From: Cyanobacteria bacterium RM1_2_2
Lineage (GTDB): Bacteria > Cyanobacteriota > Cyanobacteriia > Elainellales > Elainellaceae
DNA length: 64,000 nucleotides
NCBI GenBank assembly: GCA_012033495.1
Contig: JAAUQT010000005.1
Coordinates: forward strand, 1-64,000
Direction of reading: 5' to 3'
Part shown: positions 934 through 57,121 of the stretch, one piece after another
Position numbering within the stretch: position 1 is the stretch's first letter
How the letters are laid out: every line of letters begins with the position of its first letter
Position numbers and translations under genes: made by a program
The notes under the pieces: generated by a model
Databases searched by the model: none
Seen by the model: the letters and a program-made list of their open reading frames with translations, nothing else
Told to the model about the DNA's origin: nothing

Positions 934-2000
934 CTATTTGTTGAACTCTTTGAGTAGAGGGCTTTGGGCCTGCACAGAACCGCCAAGCCAGTCTTGTGGC
1001 TTGAGGAAGAGGTCATAAAGCTGGGCTTCAGGGGTGTTAGCTTCAGGGGAGTAGCTGTACTCCCAGCGCACCAGCGGCGGCAGAGACATCAAAACAGATT
1101 CGATTCGCCCTTTGGTCTGGAGTCCAAAAATTGTCCCTCGGTCATAAACCAAATTGAACTCAACATAGCGTCCACGGCGATAAAGCTGAAACTCGCGTTC
1201 TCGATCGCTCCATTCGGTGTTGCGTCGCCGTTCTGCAATAGGCACATAGGCTGGCAAAAAAGCATTGCCACAGTCTTGCACAAACGCGAAAAGATCTTCC
1301 CAACTGCGTTCGAGATCGCCGACTGCCTTACCGTAGCTGGCTGCAATGCCGTCATCGTCGGGCCCTTGATACAATTTGCCGCGATTGTCTTGGTAATCAA
1401 AGAAAATGCCGCCCACACCGCGCGTTTCCCGGCGGTGTTTGAGATAGAAGTATTCATCACACCAGCGTTTGAAGGTGGGATAGTATTCGCTGTGGTGTTT
1501 ATCGCAGGCGTCTTTTAAGGTTTGGTGAAAGTGCTGAACGTCTTCCAAAAAGGATAGTAGGGCGTCAGGTCGATGCCGCCGCCAAACCACCAAACGGGGC
1601 CAGCTTCAAAGTAGCGGTAGTTGAGGTGAACCGTCGGAATGTAGGGATTGTGGGGATGCAGCACCATTGAAGTCCCAGTGGCATAAAAGCCGTTGCCTGC
1701 GGCTTCAGGGCGCTGTACCAAAATGGAGGGTGGCAAATCCTTACCCCAAACCTCCGAGAAATTGACCCCGCCCTGCTCAAAAATGTCGCCTGCCTTCATC
1801 ACACGAGAGCGACCGCCGCCACCTTCTTCCCGCTCCCAGCTATCTTCATGAAAGGTGCCGCTGCCATCAAGTTGCTCTAAACCCTGGCAAATGCTGTCTT
1901 GTAATGTTTTGAGAAACTGCCCAACCCGCTGGCGTGAATCGGACGGTGGCAGGATATTGGTTGTAGAGGTGTTCGGAACGGACGTGTTCACCATAGTCAA
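934..2000 (-). pseudogene. hemF: Coproporphyrinogen III oxidase, oxygen-dependent, frameshifted
   Basis: HemF oxidatively decarboxylates coproporphyrinogen III to protoporphyrinogen IX in heme and chlorophyll synthesis. The N-terminal part (from 2000) carries GGGGRSRVM and [12 protein letters not shown]. The rest continues in another frame with [25 protein letters not shown]-like and RGVGGIFFD motifs and ends at 934. The two halves join without loss of conserved sequence if one base is added to the run of five A (plus strand) at 1547-1551, giving [11 protein letters not shown]. The restored protein of about 355 residues is the normal family length. As written, translation stops soon after residue 150. 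This is either a sequencing error or a recent inactivation; an oxygen-independent HemN elsewhere could compensate. Confidence 0.85.
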
Positions 2001-2253: not shown

Positions 2254-4629
2254 TTACTGGGATTCTGCCTGCTGCGAGTTTGTTTCACTGGCTTCTACTC
2301 TCGGTTGACAAAAACCTCTGGTTTCTTGGGTGCGGCCAAACATCTCGCGGTCTGAGTGGGTGAACTGATTGGTGTCAATGTAGTCATCTAGTTTTCGACA
2401 GCTTTCATTAATTAGATCATCTAACACTTCATTGCTGTATCCAATGGGTAAAGGGCGAAGCAAAACTTTCCGATCTTTGCTTGCTGAAGCCAGCGTCCTT
2501 CCATCAGGACTGAAGTTAACGCTAACTACTTCGCGTCGATGTTCACTGAAAGTTGTAATGACATCACCCTCTTTTTTCCACAGTTTCACCGTGCCATCTT
2601 GACTCGCGGAAGCCAACAAATAGCCCTCTGAACTGTTGTAATCAGCGCTGTATCGCAGCCGCAAGATCGGGGCGCTGTGTCCTCTCAGGGATTTAAAAGG
2701 CTGTAGCTTTAAGTTTTCGGTCTCTGGGTTTGCAATCCGCCAAAGCTTGACGCTGTTATCTCGGCTGTCGGCTGCGGCTAACCATTCACCATCGGGGCTA
2801 AAGCTGACGCTCTCAATGTCGCCCAACTGCTGATCTTTGAAATGGGTCACGGTTTGCAGTTGCTCTCCGTCTTGATTCCAGATGATAATTTCCCCTACCG
2901 AATTGGCGATGGAGGCTTCTTTACTGGCAGACACGAGTAGTCGTCCAGAGGGGCTGAAGTGAACGCTAGTCGGAATCCCTGTGTGCGCCTTCAAGGTAGT
3001 GCGGAGCTGACCATCTGAAGATTGCCACAACTTCACAGTATAGTCTTCCCCTGCTGTTGCCACCACTTGACCATCAGGGCTGAGACTCACGCTAGAGACT
3101 GGCTTCTGATGAGCTTTAGTGGTCTGCATCGATGGATCAAGCGTGGAGGGATCAAGCAATTCTTGCTCCTGAGATAAGAGTTGATCCTTCGACAAATCCA
3201 CTCGCCACAAAACAACTTTGCCGTCTTCGTCACCGGAAACCAAAAGATTGCGACGGTCATTCAGGCTGATACCCCGAATATTGGTTTGTGATACGTCTCT
3301 CGTGCCGATTCGGGTTCCATCGGGTCGCCAAAAGTTCAAGCTTTGCAAGCCGCTCGAAACCAGAAATTTACCAGTTTGACTAAAAATCACGTCAAAAATT
3401 TGGCGCTGATGCGGCAGGCGCACAATGGAATCATTGCTCGTTTGCCAGAGTCGAATTGAGCCATCGGCGCTCGCTGAAGCCAGCATTTGTCCATCTTGAG
3501 TGAAGTCAACGTCTAGAATTTCGTTGCGGTGTCCTTGCAGGTCATTCCACAGGGCATCGTTTTCTTGCTGCCAAAATTCAGCAGTATTGAGCAATCCAGA
3601 AGTTAATTGGCTGCTCGGCTGCCAGAGCTTCACCGTATCGTCTGCCCCCGCCGAGGCAATCATGCGGCTGTCTGGGCTGAACTGAACGCGATAAACCTCG
3701 TCTTGGTGTCCGCGTAAGGTGCGTAAGGGTTGACCCTCTGCGGCGTTCCACACTCGGATCGTATAGTCGGCACTGGCAGAGGCGAGCACCTGACTGTCGT
3801 GGCTAAACACCGTGCGATAGACGTTATCTTCGTGTCCTGCGAGGTTGGCAACCAGCGTTCCATCTGCCTTCCAGAGCCGAATTGTGCGCTCAAACCCGGA
3901 AGAGACGAGCCGTTGACCATCCGGGCTAAAGCTGACCCAAATATGGGAGTCGGTATTGGGTAAAGCTTTCACTTGGGCAAAGTTTTTTCCTGACCACAGC
4001 CGCACGCCGTTAAACCCAGCAGAAGCCAGCGTTTGACTATCAGGACTAAAACTCAGGCTATAAACTGGCTCACCAACTTGCAGGGTGGCAACCGGCTCAA
4101 CGGCTCGTCGTCCCAGTCTTGCCCAAATTTTGACCGTTCCATCTTGACTGGCAGAGGCAATCCAGCGACCGTTGGGGCTAAACCGCACATCAAACACTCG
4201 CTCAGTATGATTGGCTAGGGTTTTGATCAGCTTCCAAGTCGGGACGCCTGCGGGCGAACGGGCAATTTGCCAGAGTTTAATGTTGCCGTCATAGCTGGCG
4301 GAAACAAGCTGTTGGCGCTTGGCAAAGAAATCAATCGCCACCACATCTTCTTGATGCCCGACAAGAGGCTGGGCAACCGGAGTACCGTCGCTTTGCCAAA
4401 GCCGAATCGTGCCGTCTTGCCCGGAGGAAGCCAATAAGCCATCCTCACCGATAAAGCGGGCGCGATAGACTCGTCCTTGATGCATCTCCAGCCGATTGTG
4501 TTCATTCAGCCCGTAGATGGATTTATGCAAAGCCGTCACCACCTGCACTTGCGAACCTGGGTCGATTAAACCGAGTAGATCGCCCAACACTCGATTTTTC
4601 AGATCTCTGCCCGCTTTGAGGCTAACCAT
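2254..4629 (-). CDS. WD40-repeat protein (probable C-terminal half of TIR-WD40 protein)
   Basis: 791 residues holding about fifteen WD40 blades from residue ~45 to ~745, each with the pattern SPDG..LASAS.D.T.KLW. That is enough for two seven-bladed propellers, which in this family act as protein-binding or sensing platforms. Its ATG overlaps the TGA of the upstream TIR gene (TGATG at 4627-4631). Upstream of that ATG the same frame reads KQELDAL directly into MVSLKAGRDLK, a linker typical of cyanobacterial TIR/STAND-WD40 proteins just before the repeats. The real N-terminus is therefore probably in the TIR gene and the present start a by-product of a one-base deletion. Alternatively the two could be translationally coupled subunits. 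Confidence 0.85.
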   Translation of the reverse strand: MVSLKAGRDLKNRVLGDLLGLIDPGSQVQVVTALHKSIYGLNEHNRLEMHQGRVYRARFIGEDGLLASSGQDGTIRLWQSDGTPVAQPLVGHQEDVVAIDFFAKRQQLVSASYDGNIKLWQIARSPAGVPTWKLIKTLANHTERVFDVRFSPNGRWIASASQDGTVKIWARLGRRAVEPVATLQVGEPVYSLSFSPDSQTLASAGFNGVRLWSGKNFAQVKALPNTDSHIWVSFSPDGQRLVSSGFERTIRLWKADGTLVANLAGHEDNVYRTVFSHDSQVLASASADYTIRVWNAAEGQPLRTLRGHQDEVYRVQFSPDSRMIASAGADDTVKLWQPSSQLTSGLLNTAEFWQQENDALWNDLQGHRNEILDVDFTQDGQMLASASADGSIRLWQTSNDSIVRLPHQRQIFDVIFSQTGKFLVSSGLQSLNFWRPDGTRIGTRDVSQTNIRGISLNDRRNLLVSGDEDGKVVLWRVDLSKDQLLSQEQELLDPSTLDPSMQTTKAHQKPVSSVSLSPDGQVVATAGEDYTVKLWQSSDGQLRTTLKAHTGIPTSVHFSPSGRLLVSASKEASIANSVGEIIIWNQDGEQLQTVTHFKDQQLGDIESVSFSPDGEWLAAADSRDNSVKLWRIANPETENLKLQPFKSLRGHSAPILRLRYSADYNSSEGYLLASASQDGTVKLWKKEGDVITTFSEHRREVVSVNFSPDGRTLASASKDRKVLLRPLPIGYSNEVLDDLINESCRKLDDYIDTNQFTHSDREMFGRTQETRGFCQPRVEASETNSQQAESQ

Positions 4630-6029
4630 CAGCGCGTCGAGTTCTTGCTTCGTTCGAGCGAATTCACCAGCGCTTTGATTTCGCTAGTTGTCTTAATTTC
4701 GGTGACTAAGAAGGAGCCAACAATCCCAACGGTTGCCAAGCCACCTGCCAACCAACGCACCAGCCGCATCCGGTTGCGATTCTTTTTGGAAGCCTGGACA
4801 AATTCTCGTTGCAGTTGGGTAGGTTTCGGCTCTTTTTCCGCATCGTCGCCTTGCGCCAACCAAGCAATCGCATCCCTGAGCTTACTGCCTCGCAGCAAAA
4901 ACTCTTCGTTGCGCTTTTGTTCATCCCACTCAATCGCCTGCAAGAGTAAGTTCGTGTGGGCTTTGACGTACTTTTCATCTTTCTTGATTACATCGAGCAG
5001 ATTGGGCAACAGCGCATCAAAGCTGCGGTAATTATCAAAGTAAAGCCAGTTGCGCTCTTTTACGGCTTCGTGTACCTGTCTGCGATCGTAGTCGCGCCGC
5101 AGCACAATTGTAATCACCCGCTTTTTATGTTCGGCAGCTTGCCCGATCTCGTCGCGGCAATATTTCGAGCCAACCGACTCCGAACTCATGATGAAGAGAA
5201 AGTTATCGGAATTTTTGATGCCTTCTTTCAGTTCCTCGCGCCAAGGAGACGCCACCGGAATGTTTTCCCAATCAACCCAAAGGTTAACGTTGTTTCGTTT
5301 CAGGTCACGGCACAGATTTTCTACAAACGCCTTGTCGCGCCGGGAGTAGGAGACGAACACATCCGGGCGGCGCGGCAACAAATGCCGAATCTCAGCGGCA
5401 ACGCTGGCTTGGTAATATTCAGCTTGCAGCGGCGTCAGTTGCAGTTTCAGAGCGGTGTTGTTTTCAACCCATTCTTTCACCGACTCTAGATCGCTTTTGT
5501 AGAGTAAGAAGTTGACATCTCGACCGCTTTTTTCCCATTCGCTGGCTCTCGTGCGCAGTCGTTCGTAAATGTGGACATGGGTAACTCTGGCGGCAAGTGG
5601 CTCAAACGGATCTTGCGGATTAGCTAAATCAATCAGAATCCAGGCGTCTCGATCTTGAAGCCATTCCGGTACAGTGGCTTCCTCAACAGCCCGACAAACC
5701 ACCGGAATGATTGGCTTTTGGCACTGCGCGGCAAACTGTAGCTCTGCTAAATCTGATTCTGAAGCGAGCGAATCAGGACTGATCACAAACACAAACACAT
5801 CGGCTTCGTTGATCCCTTCTTCGATGTACTGCCACTCTTCAGCTTGAGTGCGAGCCATGCTGTAGGGCAAATCTTCTAGATCGATCCAAGGATTACGTCC
5901 CAAGCCTCGGATGGCTGTATCTAACTTTTTGACGAATTCAATATCTTCAAAAGCGTAGGCAATGAAGAGATCATTTTTTCGTGAATTGGAGGCAGATGCA
6001 AAGCTGGCAGTTGGAACAGCGTCAACCAT
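4629..6029 (-). CDS. Tandem TIR-domain membrane protein
   Basis: 466 residues. The first TIR domain spans about residues 17-150 (start KNDLFIAYAFEDIEFVKKL) and the second about 223-340 (PDVFVSYSRRDKAFVENL). The second keeps an S..S.YC.DE pattern, placing a glutamate where NAD-cleaving TIR domains have the catalytic one. A hydrophobic segment at about residues 426-445 (WLAGGLATVGIVGSFLV) should anchor it in the membrane. After it, the text reads EIKALVNSLERSKNSTR and stops, overlapping the WD40 gene start by one base of shared stop/start. Cyanobacterial homologues often continue through such a segment into WD40 repeats, so the stop probably reflects a one-base loss near 4655-4670. NADase activity is not shown here. 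Confidence 0.85.
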   Translation of the reverse strand: MVDAVPTASFASASNSRKNDLFIAYAFEDIEFVKKLDTAIRGLGRNPWIDLEDLPYSMARTQAEEWQYIEEGINEADVFVFVISPDSLASESDLAELQFAAQCQKPIIPVVCRAVEEATVPEWLQDRDAWILIDLANPQDPFEPLAARVTHVHIYERLRTRASEWEKSGRDVNFLLYKSDLESVKEWVENNTALKLQLTPLQAEYYQASVAAEIRHLLPRRPDVFVSYSRRDKAFVENLCRDLKRNNVNLWVDWENIPVASPWREELKEGIKNSDNFLFIMSSESVGSKYCRDEIGQAAEHKKRVITIVLRRDYDRRQVHEAVKERNWLYFDNYRSFDALLPNLLDVIKKDEKYVKAHTNLLLQAIEWDEQKRNEEFLLRGSKLRDAIAWLAQGDDAEKEPKPTQLQREFVQASKKNRNRMRLVRWLAGGLATVGIVGSFLVTEIKTTSEIKALVNSLERSKNSTR

Positions 6030-6157: not shown

Positions 6158-6283
6158 ACAGGACTTACGCAACTCAAGCGACTTTGCCCCCCAAATCCCC
6201 TATTCTAGGGGACTTTGAGAAAAAACAGATCAGAGAAGTCCACCACAAGTGGGGAATTTAGGGGGCAGATGCGTAAGTCCTAT
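6158..6283. repeat. MITE-like element, family 1, copy 1
   Basis: Perfect terminal inverted repeats AGGACTTACGCA (6160-6171) and TGCGTAAGTCCT (6270-6281) enclose about 98 bp with no coding capacity. Inner parts also pair (CCCCCCAAATCCCC against GGGGAATTTAGGGGG), so the whole element can fold into a long hairpin. A second, diverged copy lies at 9350-9471. These are the marks of a non-autonomous miniature transposable element; no transposase is in the window. Confidence 0.75.
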
Positions 6284-9322: not shown

Positions 9323-9349
9323 AATCTATAGAAGCCAAGAATAATCAAC

Positions 9350-9471
9350 AGGACTCCCGCAATCGAAGCGATTTCGCCCCCCAAATCCCCCAGAATGGGG
9401 GACTTTGAGAGAAAACGGCTTGGAGCAGTCCCCAATTGGTGGGGGATTTGAGGGACAGATGGGTAAGTCCT
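9350..9471. repeat. MITE-like element, family 1, copy 2
   Basis: Homologous to 6158-6283: left end AGGACTCCCGCA, right end TGGGTAAGTCCT, with shared inner blocks GCCCCCCAAATCCCC, GGGGACTTTGAGA and GGGGGATTTGAGGG. The terminal repeats have diverged from each other more than in copy 1. It fills most of the gap between ppk1 and recQ. Confidence 0.7.
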
Positions 9472-9553
9472 AATCAATAATTTTTAGGAAATGATCCCAT
9501 TTCGGATTGGCTGGAAAGGGTAAAAATGGGGACAGTGGAATCCGATAGAACAT

Positions 9554-11407
9554 ATGACCTCTCAATTGCCGTCTGTTCAAGTTGAGGTAAACACTCCAGA
9601 ACAGGCATTAAAACACTACTTTGGCTACGACAGCTTCCGTCCGGGGCAACTGCAAATCGTCGAAGCAGCTTTGCAGAACCAAGACGGATTGGTGATCATG
9701 CCAACTGGAGGTGGAAAATCCCTGTGCTATCAACTGCCAGCTTTGCTGAAGCCGGGTTTAACGATTGTGATTTCGCCGTTAATTGCGCTGATGCAGGATC
9801 AGGTGCAGGCTTTGCAGGATAACGGCATTGGGGCAACCTTTCTCAACAGTACGCTGAACGGTTTGGAAGTGCGGCAGCGCGGGCAGCAAATTCTGAGTGG
9901 GCAAATTAAATTACTCTATGTGGCTCCAGAACGACTGCTGACTGAGCAATTTTTGCTGTTTCTCGATCAGGTGACGGCGCAAATCGGCATCGCAACGGTA
10001 GCCATTGACGAAGCCCACTGTGTTTCTGAATGGGGGCATGATTTCCGCCCAGAATATCGTCAGTTGCGTTCCTTGCGGCAGCGTTATCCAGACGTGCCGG
10101 TGTTGGCGCTCACAGCTACAGCCACGGCGCGGGTGCAGCAAGACATCATGGAGCAGTTGGGTTTGCAGCAGCCGTTTGTTCACATTGCCAGTTTTAATCG
10201 TCCGAATCTGCATTACGAAGTGCGCCCCAAGCCCAAACAACCCTATCGGGAACTGCTACGGCTGATTCAACAAACGCCCGGATCAGGAATTATTTACTGT
10301 CTGAGCCGCAAAAAAGTAGATGAAATTACCCAAAAGCTGCAAGCTGATGGCGTTGAGGCGTTACCCTACCATGCTGGACTCAACGATCAGGTGCGGCAAA
10401 AGAACCAAACTCGGTTTATTCGAGACGATGTGCGCGTCATGGTTGCCACGATTGCCTTTGGCATGGGCATCAACAAGCCCGACGTGCGGTTTGTGATTCA
10501 CTATGATTTGCCGCGCAATCTGGAAGGCTACTATCAAGAATCGGGTCGGGCCGGACGAGACGGAGAACCCGCCAAATGTTTGCTGTTGTTTAGCTATGGC
10601 GACATTCGCACCATCGAGTTTTTAATTGATCAAAAAGTTGATCCGCTAACCAGCGAACCGCTCGAAGCCGAACAGCAAATCGCCCGTCAGCAGCTACGCC
10701 AAGTCATCGACTATGCCGAAGGCATCGAATGTCGTCGCACGATTCAGTTAGGCTATTTTGGGGAACGGTTTCCCGGTAGCTGCGCCAACTGCGATAACTG
10801 CCTTAGCCCGCGAGCACCGCAAGATTGGACGATCGAAGCGCAGAAGTTTCTCTCTTGCGTGGCGCGTTGCCAAGAGCGGTTTGGCATGACCTACATTATC
10901 GACGTGCTGCGGGGTTCTAAAGAAAAGCGGATTTTGGCAAATCGTCACGATCAGCTTTCTACCCATGGCATCGGCAAAGATCACAGCGCCGAAGATTGGC
11001 GGATTCTGGGACGTTCTTTGATCCATCAAGGATTGCTCGACGAAACAACGGATGGCTACTCTGTGCTGAAACTAAACCCACTGAGTTGGGAGGTGTTGCG
11101 GAAACAGCGGTTGGTTCACATTGCGTTGCCCAATCGTCCGACTGCGGCGCGAACGGTTTCCACAGAAGCCAAAGCCAATGCCGAAATGCTGTTTGAACAG
11201 TTGCGGAAGCTGCGGAAACAAATTGCTGATGAACAGGCGGTTCCGCCTTACGTGGTGTTTGCCGACTCTAGCCTGCGGCTGATGTCTCAACTGCAACCCC
11301 AAACCATTGATGCTTTCTCAGAAATTTCTGGCGTGGGCAGCCACAAGCTGGCTCGCTATGGGCCGCGTTTTGTGGAAGAAATCCAGGCTTTTTGTCGAGC
11401 GCAATGA
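9554..11407 (+). CDS. recQ: ATP-dependent DNA helicase RecQ
   Basis: 617 residues with the full RecQ order. The helicase core at about residues 15-345 carries Walker A MPTGGGKSLCYQ, the DEAH box, ASFNRPNL and ESGRAGRDGEP. The zinc-binding RQC domain follows, with cysteines in IECRR and SCANCDNC, then a winged helix, and an HRDC domain fills the last ~80 residues (LRLMSQLQPQTIDAF). The enzyme unwinds forked and gapped DNA in recombinational repair. The ATG at 9554 follows an AT-rich leader without a strong ribosome site. The gene is complete and stands alone. Confidence 0.96.
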   Translation: MTSQLPSVQVEVNTPEQALKHYFGYDSFRPGQLQIVEAALQNQDGLVIMPTGGGKSLCYQLPALLKPGLTIVISPLIALMQDQVQALQDNGIGATFLNSTLNGLEVRQRGQQILSGQIKLLYVAPERLLTEQFLLFLDQVTAQIGIATVAIDEAHCVSEWGHDFRPEYRQLRSLRQRYPDVPVLALTATATARVQQDIMEQLGLQQPFVHIASFNRPNLHYEVRPKPKQPYRELLRLIQQTPGSGIIYCLSRKKVDEITQKLQADGVEALPYHAGLNDQVRQKNQTRFIRDDVRVMVATIAFGMGINKPDVRFVIHYDLPRNLEGYYQESGRAGRDGEPAKCLLLFSYGDIRTIEFLIDQKVDPLTSEPLEAEQQIARQQLRQVIDYAEGIECRRTIQLGYFGERFPGSCANCDNCLSPRAPQDWTIEAQKFLSCVARCQERFGMTYIIDVLRGSKEKRILANRHDQLSTHGIGKDHSAEDWRILGRSLIHQGLLDETTDGYSVLKLNPLSWEVLRKQRLVHIALPNRPTAARTVSTEAKANAEMLFEQLRKLRKQIADEQAVPPYVVFADSSLRLMSQLQPQTIDAFSEISGVGSHKLARYGPRFVEEIQAFCRAQ

Positions 11408-53436: not shown

Positions 53437-55110
53437 TTAATCCAAAGCGCCAAATCCGCCTCCGCCAGGCGTTTCAATCACAAACACATCACCAGGCTGT
53501 ATCTGAACTTCGGCTCTGCTGCTCAAAAGCTCGACAGTTCCATCACGCCGCTCGACCGCATTCCTCCCGACTAAACCTGGTTCACCTCCTTGCAGGCCAA
53601 ACGGTGGAATGACTCGATGTCCTGACAGAATTGCGGCTGTCATGGCTTCTCGAAAGCGAATTCGCCGAATCACGCCATTGCCGCCAGAGTGTGCTCCCTT
53701 GCCACCACTCTGGGGACGAATCGCAAATTTTTCGACCAGCACCGGAAACCGCCACTCCAACACCTCTGGGTCAGTCAGGCGAGAGTTGGTCATGTGGGTT
53801 TGAACAGCGTCTGTGCCGTTAAAAGTGGCTCCGGCCCCAGAACCGCCACAAATCGTCTCGTAATATTGATGGCGTTCGTTGCCAAAGGTGAAGTTGTTCA
53901 TCGTGCCTTGAGCCGCTGCCATCACGCCGAGCGCTCCGTATAGTGCGTTGGCAATGGCTTGAGAGGTTTCCACGTTTCCAGCAACCACAGCCGCCGGATA
54001 GCGCGGGTTTAAAAAACACCCTTCTGGAATAATCATTTTGAGTGGTTTTAAGCAGCCTGCATTCAGCGGAATGTCGTCTTCAACTAACGTGCGAAACACA
54101 TACAGCACAACGGCTTTACAAATTGCTAGCGGAGCATTTAAATTGGTTGCCTGTTGCGGAGAAGTGCCTGTGAAATCAATCTGTGCCGTTCGGTTAGCAT
54201 GATTAATCGTGATTGCAACTCTGATCTCACTACCGTTATCCATCACGTAATGGAAATTTCCGTCTCTTAAAACCTCAATAACTCGCCGTACCGATTCTTC
54301 AGCATTCTCTTGAACGTATTGCATATATTGCTGAACTGTTTCTAAGCCATAGTGCTCGACCATACGGTGAAGCTCTTGCACGCCTCGCTCGTTTGCGGCG
54401 ATCTGAGCCTGAAGGTCGGCTAAATTCTGGGTTGGGTTGCGGACGGGATAAGCGCCGGATGTTAACACTTGCAGCAATTCAGCTTCTCTGAACTGCCCCT
54501 GATGGACAAGCTGGAAATTATTGAGGAGCACCCCTTCTTGCTCAACTGTGACGCTGTAGGGCGGCATTGAACCGGGCGTAATTCCACCAATGTCGGCATG
54601 ATGCCCGCGAGAAGCGACATAAAAGAGAGGTTGCGATTGATCTGGTTGTCCTTGCCAGAACACAGGTGTGATCACTGTAATATCAGGCAAGTGAGTGCCA
54701 CCGTTGTAGGGATTATTAGACACATAAACATCGCCAGATTTCAACGTGTTGCCATGGGCGTGAATCAAACTACGAACACTTTCACTCATGGAACCGAGAT
54801 GAACAGGAATATGGGGTGCATTGGCCACAAGCTGTCCCTGCTGATCGAAAATGGCACAGGAGAAATCTAGTCGTTCTTTGATGTTGACGGAGTAGCTGGT
54901 GTTTTGCAGCGTAATGCCCATCTGTTCGGCGATGGCTCGGACGAGGTTGTTGAAGATTTCTAGCAGGACGGGGTCAGGGGAGTGGGGAGGTGGGGAGGTG
55001 GGGAGTGGGGAAGTAGGGAGGTGGGGAGTGGGGGGAGACTGGAGGCTGTTGGGTTTGCTTGAGGATGAGGTGGCTGCGTGAGGTGAGGTAGGCTGTCCAG
55101 CCGGGTTCAA
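53437..55110 (-). CDS. Hydantoinase B/5-oxoprolinase, beta part
   Basis: 557 residues. The HyuB domain begins at DPVLLEIFNNLVRAIAEQMG and has FSCAIFDQQGQLVANAPHIP, SNNPYNGGTHLPDITVITPV, GGITPGSMPP and the closing GGGGFGALD. Together with HyuA it cleaves 5-oxoproline (or hydantoin) using ATP. Before the domain the frame is Pro/Ser/Thr-rich, encoded by tandem repeats, and starts only at TTG 55110. No ATG precedes the domain. In many cyanobacteria HyuA and HyuB are one polypeptide, so this is probably the second half of a fused gene whose frame changes in the repeats. Confidence 0.9.
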   Translation of the reverse strand: MNPAGQPTSPHAATSSSSKPNSLQSPPTPHLPTSPLPTSPPPHSPDPVLLEIFNNLVRAIAEQMGITLQNTSYSVNIKERLDFSCAIFDQQGQLVANAPHIPVHLGSMSESVRSLIHAHGNTLKSGDVYVSNNPYNGGTHLPDITVITPVFWQGQPDQSQPLFYVASRGHHADIGGITPGSMPPYSVTVEQEGVLLNNFQLVHQGQFREAELLQVLTSGAYPVRNPTQNLADLQAQIAANERGVQELHRMVEHYGLETVQQYMQYVQENAEESVRRVIEVLRDGNFHYVMDNGSEIRVAITINHANRTAQIDFTGTSPQQATNLNAPLAICKAVVLYVFRTLVEDDIPLNAGCLKPLKMIIPEGCFLNPRYPAAVVAGNVETSQAIANALYGALGVMAAAQGTMNNFTFGNERHQYYETICGGSGAGATFNGTDAVQTHMTNSRLTDPEVLEWRFPVLVEKFAIRPQSGGKGAHSGGNGVIRRIRFREAMTAAILSGHRVIPPFGLQGGEPGLVGRNAVERRDGTVELLSSRAEVQIQPGDVFVIETPGGGGFGALD

Positions 55111-57121
55111 CCACGTTTGTGCCAGTGGGTTCGATGATTAGCGCGGCTCCGATAATCTGATCCCCAGATTGGAGGTCAGAACGCTGGTAGATTGGGGTTT
55201 CGTGCCAGTTGCCTTTGGTGTAGATTTGGACAGCGCCGACAGGTTTGAGAGGCGTTAAGCGGGTGACGGGCAGGAGAGGTTCTGCGGGCGCAGGGGTTTG
55301 CCCAATGGCTTCAACCGAAACGGCTTCGACGATTAAGGTTTTGTGAGCCATCACGAAGCCATAGCGCTGCTGGTATGCCTGCTCGAACTCGGTTCGCATT
55401 GCGGCAGGGTTGCCAAACGTCACAATTAGGGCAGAATCCGTGCCCTCGTAACGCAGATGAGATTTGAGCAAAACCTGCATCTGATCGGGGGCAACGCCTT
55501 GAGCGCTTAACTCCGATTGGGCCTCATTGGCTAGCGCTTCTAGGGTTTTGTGAAGGAGCGGCATGGCAGCTTCGGTGAGGGGCGTTTCGACGGCTTTTTC
55601 TTTCAGGGAACGCAGATCGGCTAGCCCAATTCCGTAGGCAGACAGCACGCCTGCATAGGGATGCAGAAAAATCTGAGTCATGCCCAAGGCTTCAGCAATC
55701 AGGCAGGCATGTTGTCCACCCGCACCGCCAAAGCAGCAGAGCGTGTATTCGGTTACGTCATAGCCGCGCTGGATCGAGATTTTTTTAATCGCATTGGCCA
55801 TTTTGTCGATTGCAATTGCCAAGAAGCCGGCGGCCACCTGCTCTGGCGTAGTTTGGCTTTCGGTGATTTGGCTGATTTCAGCCGCTAATTCGGCAAACTG
55901 TTGGCGCACGATCGCCCCATCCAGCGGCAGGTTGCCCTCTGAGCCAAACACGCTAGGGAAAAAGTCTGCCTGAAGCTTGCCGAGCATCACATTACAGTCG
56001 GTCACGGTCAGCGGGCCGCCGCCACGGTAGCAGGCCGGGCCAGGATAGGCTCCCGCAGAAGCCGGCCCGACTCGATAGCGCGATCCATCGAATCTGAGAA
56101 TTGAGCCGCCGCCTGCCGCTACCGTGTGGATCGCCATCATGGGTGCTCGCAGCCGCACACCCGCCACTTCGGTTTCAAAGGTGCGCTCGTAAGTGCCGTT
56201 GAAGTGGGAAACATCGGTAGATGTGCCGCCCATATCGAAACCAATCATTTTGTTGAATCCGGCAAGGGCGCTGGTTTTGACGGCTCCGACAATGCCGCCT
56301 GCTGGCCCTGATAGAATGCTGTCTTTGCCTTGAAACAACGCTGCATCGGTCAATCCACCATTCGACTGCATAAACATCAGTTTGGGGGAAGTGCCCGTTC
56401 CGCAACTTAATTCTGCTGCGACTCGATCGACATACCGACGCAGAATCGGTGAAAGATAGGCATCGACAATGGTAGTATCGCCTCGGCTCACTAGCTTCAT
56501 CAACGGGCTGACTGTATGCGATACCGAGACCTGAGTGAAGCCAATTTCCCGCACGATTGCCGCCATGTGCTGCTCGTGATCAGAGTAGCGGTAGCCGTGC
56601 ATCAACACAATCGCACAAGCTCGAATCCCGGCTGCATACGCCGATTGCAGTGACTCGATCAGCGAATTGTCGAGCTGAAGCGGAGTCAGCACTTCACCAT
56701 CGGCTGTGTAGCGCTCCTCAACTTCAATCACCTGCTCATACAGCATTTCTGGCAGAACAATGTGGCGAGCAAAAATGTTGGGACGGTTCTGATAGCCAAT
56801 CCGCAGCGCATCCCGGAAGCCTTTAGTAATCAACAAGAGGGTGCGATCACCTTTGCGTTCCAATAAAGCGTTTGTAGCAACCGTGGTTCCCATTTTCACG
56901 GCTTCAATTTGCTCAGAGGGAATCGGCACATCAGCCGGAATCCCCAAAACATCGCGGATGCCCTGAATCGGCGCATCACTATAGCGAGCGGGGTTTTCAG
57001 ACAGCAACTTGTGGACAATGATTTCACCATTCGGGCAACGGGCAACTACATCGGTAAAAGTGCCGCCGCGATCGATCCAAAACTGCCAGCGTCCGGTTTC
57101 AGAGGGGTTGGAGTGCGCCAT
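54974..57121 (-). CDS. Hydantoinase A/5-oxoprolinase, alpha part
   Basis: 715 residues. The actin/hexokinase-like ATPase fold shows in FWIDRGGTFTDVVARCPNGE, VKMGTTVATNALLERKGDRT, IGFDMGGTSTDVSHF and GPACYRGGGPLTVTDCNVML. It ends in a Pro/Ser/His/Thr-rich stretch (PPVSPHSPPPYFPTPHLPTS) read from 7/8-bp repeats, overlapping HyuB by about 137 bp. The catalytic metal and nucleotide residues are present. The ragged, low-complexity C-terminus suggests that frame was lost here in a former HyuA-HyuB fusion. Substrate probably 5-oxoproline given the D-glutamate cyclase-like neighbour. Confidence 0.92.
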   Translation of the reverse strand: MAHSNPSETGRWQFWIDRGGTFTDVVARCPNGEIIVHKLLSENPARYSDAPIQGIRDVLGIPADVPIPSEQIEAVKMGTTVATNALLERKGDRTLLLITKGFRDALRIGYQNRPNIFARHIVLPEMLYEQVIEVEERYTADGEVLTPLQLDNSLIESLQSAYAAGIRACAIVLMHGYRYSDHEQHMAAIVREIGFTQVSVSHTVSPLMKLVSRGDTTIVDAYLSPILRRYVDRVAAELSCGTGTSPKLMFMQSNGGLTDAALFQGKDSILSGPAGGIVGAVKTSALAGFNKMIGFDMGGTSTDVSHFNGTYERTFETEVAGVRLRAPMMAIHTVAAGGGSILRFDGSRYRVGPASAGAYPGPACYRGGGPLTVTDCNVMLGKLQADFFPSVFGSEGNLPLDGAIVRQQFAELAAEISQITESQTTPEQVAAGFLAIAIDKMANAIKKISIQRGYDVTEYTLCCFGGAGGQHACLIAEALGMTQIFLHPYAGVLSAYGIGLADLRSLKEKAVETPLTEAAMPLLHKTLEALANEAQSELSAQGVAPDQMQVLLKSHLRYEGTDSALIVTFGNPAAMRTEFEQAYQQRYGFVMAHKTLIVEAVSVEAIGQTPAPAEPLLPVTRLTPLKPVGAVQIYTKGNWHETPIYQRSDLQSGDQIIGAALIIEPTGTNVVEPGWTAYLTSRSHLILKQTQQPPVSPHSPPPYFPTPHLPTSPLP
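54977..55035. repeat. Tandem 7/8-bp repeats at the oxoprolinase junction
   Basis: On the minus strand, seven units alternating ACTCCCC and ACCTCCCC (with one ACTTCCCC and one ACCTCCCT). This is the short tandem repeat type known from cyanobacteria. Both oxoprolinase frames cross it. Units of seven and eight bases change reading frame when a copy is gained or lost. Confidence 0.85.

What the first reader, a model, noticed from the sequence alone, without database searches (positions are those of the whole stretch)
2254..6029. TIR-TIR-membrane-WD40 protein split into two overlapping genes
Two TIR domains, one membrane span and fifteen WD40 blades (about 1,260 residues together) are in frame except for one base. 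The TGATG overlap also allows coupled translation. The second TIR keeps the glutamate of NAD-cleaving TIRs. A membrane-fixed TIR pair with a sensing propeller could be a conflict or death-type system or a signalling hub.
Basis: partly seen in the sequence, partly recalled or inferred. Interest (0 to 1): 0.6.

Follow-up and report, generated by a model that had tools for sequence, protein, structure and literature searches.

The report
Frame-broken cyanobacterial TIR–membrane–WD40 receptor gene
The two "overlapping genes" are one gene broken by a single missing base, probably an assembly error; the intact protein seems to be a one-pass membrane receptor with two NAD-cleaving-type TIR domains inside the cell and a large WD40 sensor outside it, a layout shared by many cyanobacteria and some Chloroflexi.

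Summary
ORFs 4629-6029(-) (TIR-TIR-TM, 466 aa) and 2254-4629(-) (WD40, 791 aa) abut at TGATG. All nine full-length orthologues are one ORF (1,241-1,301 aa), and their conserved motif ALVSSLExxQELDAL runs through the window's junction with exactly one base missing. Other genes in the same 335-contig draft are frame-broken: the only hemF (about 250 nt away), carB, and probably an nSTAND1 gene. So the "split" is most likely a sequencing or assembly indel. Split genes with coupled translation are not supported.

The protein is a duplicated TIR+helical-linker unit, a single membrane span and about 15 WD40 repeats. The NADase-type glutamate E294 of TIR2 is kept in 54 of 55 membrane-proximal TIR units. 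A new inference: the WD40 part probably lies outside the cytoplasm. Positive charge sits on the TIR side, cysteine is depleted after the span (0.16% vs 0.96% before), and a Cys pair is kept at the C-terminus. I propose a TIR receptor whose outer propeller controls cytosolic NAD cleavage. Function is inferred, not shown. The locus looks vertically inherited next to housekeeping genes, with no known defence partner nearby.

The parts
4629..6029 (-). 5' part of the broken gene: TIR1 - linker1 - TIR2 - linker2 - membrane span (466 aa as read)
5550..5975 (-). TIR1 domain (about residues 19-160); keeps a Glu at the catalytic position (AEL) but not the adjacent YC; Gln in two orthologues
5000..5363 (-). 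TIR2 domain (about residues 223-343) with NADase-type Glu294 in SKYCRDEI
4755..4985 (-). helical linker 2 (EWxxxxRxxxFLLRGxxLxxAxxWL...PTxLQREFxxAS); copy of linker 1 and shared with nSTAND1 proteins
4695..4751 (-). single membrane span LAGGLATVGIVGSFLVTEI, positive charges on the TIR side (6 K/R vs 3)
4627..4680 (-). frame break: conserved ALVSSLExxQELDALM runs through it in all orthologues; one base short here; creates TGATG by chance
2254..4629 (-). 3' part of the same gene: membrane-proximal helices, about 15 WD40 repeats, C-terminal helical tail with a conserved Cys pair
934..2000 (-). neighbouring hemF, only copy in the genome, also frame-broken (1515-1593): evidence for indel errors in the assembly

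Best explanation
This is one gene for a single-pass membrane receptor, TIR-linker-TIR-linker-TM-WD40, interrupted in this assembly by a one-base deletion that is most likely a sequencing or assembly error. In the intact protein the TIR pair faces the cytoplasm and the WD40 propellers face the periplasm (or a lumen), closed by a C-terminal disulfide. The proposed mechanism is inferred: the propeller binds a ligand or damaged envelope component, receptors cluster, and the membrane-proximal TIR2 (Glu294) forms composite active sites that cleave NAD+, either draining NAD or making an ADP-ribose-type signal; TIR1 acts mainly as an assembly scaffold. Shown here: single-ORF orthologues, domain order, unit duplication, conserved TIR2 glutamate. 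Supported statistically: the topology. Not shown: NADase activity, ligand, physiological role.
For: Nine of nine full-length orthologues are one ORF, with a one-base slip at the junction. The only hemF and carB of the same genome are frame-broken while rpoC2 is intact. E294 aligns with the AbTir catalytic-motif Glu; the equivalent Glu is in 54 of 55 membrane-proximal units. Fold matches include NADase TIRs: SARM1 TIR TMt 0.82, AbTir 0.75, SPARTA. Unit duplication: blastp E 1e-20, hhalign E 4e-39. Topology: K/R before vs after the span 4.3 vs 2.5 over 47 proteins (36 vs 6); Cys 0.96% before vs 0.16% after; 41 of 47 have exactly two Cys in the C-terminal tail. WD40 proteins without a predicted span mostly carry 8-17 Cys per 300-580 aa.
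Against: No reads are available, so a real mutation in this strain cannot be excluded; the junction is not a long homopolymer. WD40 Cys content may partly follow blade lineage rather than location. No signal for defence from the neighbourhood, which is housekeeping. No NADase assay. TIR1 keeps a Glu in 8 of 10 orthologues (window included), so it may not be purely structural.
Confidence: 0.68

Rival explanations
1. The frame break is a genuine mutation in this strain: the receptor is a recent pseudogene or a phase-variable off state.
For: No other lesion in either half; receptor genes of this kind are dispensable (no match in 15 of 36 genomes of the order at the cut-off used).
Against: hemF (sole copy) and carB cannot plausibly be dead in a living aerobic phototroph, yet both are broken in the same assembly, so indel errors are the simpler common cause. 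Both halves remain otherwise open.
Confidence: 0.2
2. A true two-gene system: TIR-TM and WD40 proteins made by coupled translation at TGATG (or one protein by programmed frameshifting).
For: TGATG overlap and both frames open.
Against: No orthologue is split; the TGATG arises from the conserved Leu-Met codons CTG ATG read one base off; no slippery site seen; the second ORF's start lies inside the conserved motif.
Confidence: 0.05
3. The TIR pair is a non-enzymatic adaptor or scaffold (signalling hub) and does not cleave NAD.
For: TIR1 loses the Glu in two orthologues and lacks the Cys/aromatic next to it; many TIRs are adaptors (established knowledge).
Against: TIR2 Glu conserved in 54 of 55 units; many of the structural matches are NADase TIRs.
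Confidence: 0.25
4. It is a ThsB-type Thoeris component.
For: PADLOC ThsB models hit TIR2 (E 1.5e-17).
Against: The hit is to the generic TIR fold. The tested near neighbours include no ThsA, the orthologous loci are housekeeping, and the TM-WD40 fusion is unlike ThsB.
Confidence: 0.03

Closest known systems
Cyanobacterial and Chloroflexi TIR(n)-TM-WD40 proteins (Elainella saxicola, Pegethrix, Leptolyngbya, Anaerolineae)
   Same: Same order: 1-3 (once up to 5) TIR+linker units, one span and, in most, WD40 and a C-terminal Cys pair
   Different: This clade has exactly two units, the first with a divergent catalytic motif; only this assembly has the frame break
nSTAND1-type NTPases
   Same: Share the EWxxxxRxxxLLRGxxLxxAxxWL helical linker after the effector/NTPase part
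   Different: TIR units replace the nSTAND1 NTPase; no P-loop NTPase here
SARM1 / AbTir / SPARTA TIR NADases
   Same: TIR fold and glutamate motif
   Different: Those use cytosolic sensors or partners (ARM domain, Argonaute) instead of a membrane span and propeller
Animal Toll-like receptors
   Same: Works-like: outer sensor, one span, cytosolic TIR (topology inferred)
   Different: Reversed chain order, WD40 instead of LRR, TIR likely enzymatic; no homology claimed outside the TIR
APAF-1 / TEP1-type WD40 sensors (PMC13174449 discusses the parallel)
   Same: WD40 propellers control an effector domain
   Different: No NTPase here; membrane-bound; propellers probably extracytoplasmic

Membership tests
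TIR_2 (PF13676) NADase-type TIR | TIR fold and Pfam match above cut-off | tested here: met
   141.6 bits vs cut-off 28; fold matches to SARM1 and AbTir TIRs
TIR_2 (PF13676) NADase-type TIR | Catalytic glutamate in the S-x-x-C-x-x-E motif | tested here: met
   E294 in TIR2, equivalent in 54 of 55 membrane-proximal units; TIR1 has Glu without YC
TIR_2 (PF13676) NADase-type TIR | NAD cleavage | not testable with these tools
   needs an enzyme assay
Cyanobacterial TIR-TM-WD40 protein family | TIR+linker, one span, WD40 in one polypeptide | tested here: met
   9 of 9 full-length orthologues and most wider homologues; in the window itself only across the one-base break
Cyanobacterial TIR-TM-WD40 protein family | N-in/C-out topology (proposed here) | tested here: inconclusive
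   statistical support only; no experiment
Thoeris (ThsB) | Linked ThsA (SIR2/NAD-binding effector) | tested here: not met
   PADLOC scan of seven neighbouring ORFs shows none
nSTAND / STAND NTPase | P-loop NTPase domain | tested here: not met
   No NTPase domain in the N-terminal half by Pfam

The most novel reading that the evidence does not exclude
A bacterial receptor class with Toll-like logic: an extracytoplasmic WD40 double propeller, one span, and cytosolic tandem TIRs of which the membrane-proximal one cleaves NAD, giving cyanobacteria and Chloroflexi envelope- or phage-sensing control of NAD.
Probability: 0.4. Interest if true: 0.62.

Novelty: new member of a known kind. Interest (0 to 1): 0.33.

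Why it matters
The split itself is ordinary and most likely an assembly error. The useful point is that a large family of bacterial TIR-membrane-WD40 proteins probably places its propeller outside the cytoplasm. If so, bacteria have one-pass receptors that link an outer signal directly to NAD cleavage, and this is easy to test with topology reporters and an NAD assay.

Tried and rejected
The first genome-contig scan with the window's TIR half found nothing. I first took the Glu of W-R-E-E as catalytic and corrected this to E294 from the AbTir alignment (notes). Thoeris membership was rejected. Coupled translation was rejected because the TGATG comes from conserved Leu-Met codons one base off. 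Programmed frameshifting: no slippery site seen, and intact single ORFs elsewhere. The PADLOC DpdF hit of the neighbour at 9554-11407 was judged generic RecQ-type helicase similarity. The literature searches found no paper on this family.

Full report
Observation. On the minus strand, 4629-6029 encodes 466 aa and 2254-4629 encodes 791 aa; stop and start share a base in TGATG. Pfam finds two TIR_2 domains in the first and 14 WD40 stretches in the second.

The split. In the 36 genomes of the order that are held (the window's own included), nine further full-length orthologues were found (38-65% identity in the TIR half); all are single ORFs, 1,241-1,301 aa. They share a motif after the membrane span, ALVSSLExxQELDAL, which the window has in two frames with one base missing. 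The ATG of the second ORF is the conserved Met just after this motif in most orthologues, and TGATG is CTG ATG read one base off. The genome is a 335-contig draft. Its only hemF (1515-1593, its start about 250 nt from the WD40 end) is broken within a T run, while six relatives are intact. carB, present over the cut-off in all 14 control genomes, lies in two overlapping frames on contig 174, whereas rpoC2 is whole. An nSTAND1 gene on contig 296 also appears to change frame. Two housekeeping enzymes broken in one phototroph point to indel errors. I therefore read the split as an artefact (about 75%), with a real strain-specific mutation next (about 20%).

Anatomy. TIR1+linker1 and TIR2+linker2 are duplicates (29% identity, E 1e-20; hhalign E 4e-39; linkers alone align too). 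AlphaFold gives a confident model (pLDDT 84), and Foldseek finds SARM1, AbTir, SPARTA and animal TIRs. By alignment to AbTir (the numbering of the AbTir catalytic residue is from general knowledge) the catalytic-motif Glu is E294 of TIR2, invariant in 30 aligned sequences and present in 54 of 55 membrane-proximal units of a wider set. TIR1 has Glu in 8 of 10 (Gln in two) without the neighbouring YC. Tandem units vary from one to three, once five, in relatives. The linker also occurs after nSTAND1 domains (best E 6e-10). The WD40 half models as propellers (pLDDT 78, pTM 0.55) and matches repetitive propellers and two-propeller proteins, including Apaf-1.

Topology. In 47 TIR-TM-WD40 proteins, K+R in the 15 residues before the span average 4.3 and after it 2.5 (36 proteins favour the TIR side, 6 the other). 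Cysteine is 0.96% before the span and 0.16% in the WD40 body, yet 41 of 47 have exactly two Cys in the last 65 residues. In two genomes, most WD40 proteins without a predicted span had 8-17 Cys per 300-580 aa. This fits an extracytoplasmic, disulfide-closed propeller and cytosolic TIRs. The caveat is that Cys content may follow blade lineage.

Context. Orthologues sit among housekeeping genes: ppk in G010, G011 and G023, and a small conserved divergent gene with fmt-like genes in several. The window has ppk upstream as well. PADLOC finds no partner. So the gene looks vertically kept, not a mobile defence cassette. TIR1-like matches occur in 101 of 390 genomes of the class, and related proteins occur in Anaerolineae.

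Mechanism. The most likely reading is a membrane receptor in which an outer propeller signal clusters cytosolic TIRs and TIR2 cleaves NAD. Activity, ligand and role are unproven. The literature searched held no study of this family.

Noticed in passing
window 934-2000: hemF, the only copy in the genome, is frame-broken within a T run at 1515-1593; intact in six relatives.
   Followed up: yes
G000 contig C174 30961-34181; C296 11577-13303: carB and an nSTAND1 gene are also frame-broken in this assembly; gene splits in this genome should be treated with caution.
   Followed up: partly
window 6160-6281 and 9348-9472: About 122-bp MITE-like element with 15-nt inverted ends (AGGACTTACGCAACT) upstream of the TIR gene; five further near-full-length copies at 89-90% and weaker ones elsewhere in the genome.
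   Followed up: partly
window 53437-57121: Hydantoinase B and A genes overlap by about 137 nt in a Pro/Ser-rich repeat stretch; may be another frame break or a natural overlap.
   Followed up: no
L034, L038, L039, L041, L042: A small conserved gene (M..ESLPTE(V/I)ILSHPRQTIG...) lies divergently upstream of the orthologue in five genomes, absent at this place in the window.
   Followed up: no
L130, L133: Homologues with five and three TIR units whose C-terminal part has few or no WD40 repeats but two extra spans near the C-terminus.
   Followed up: no
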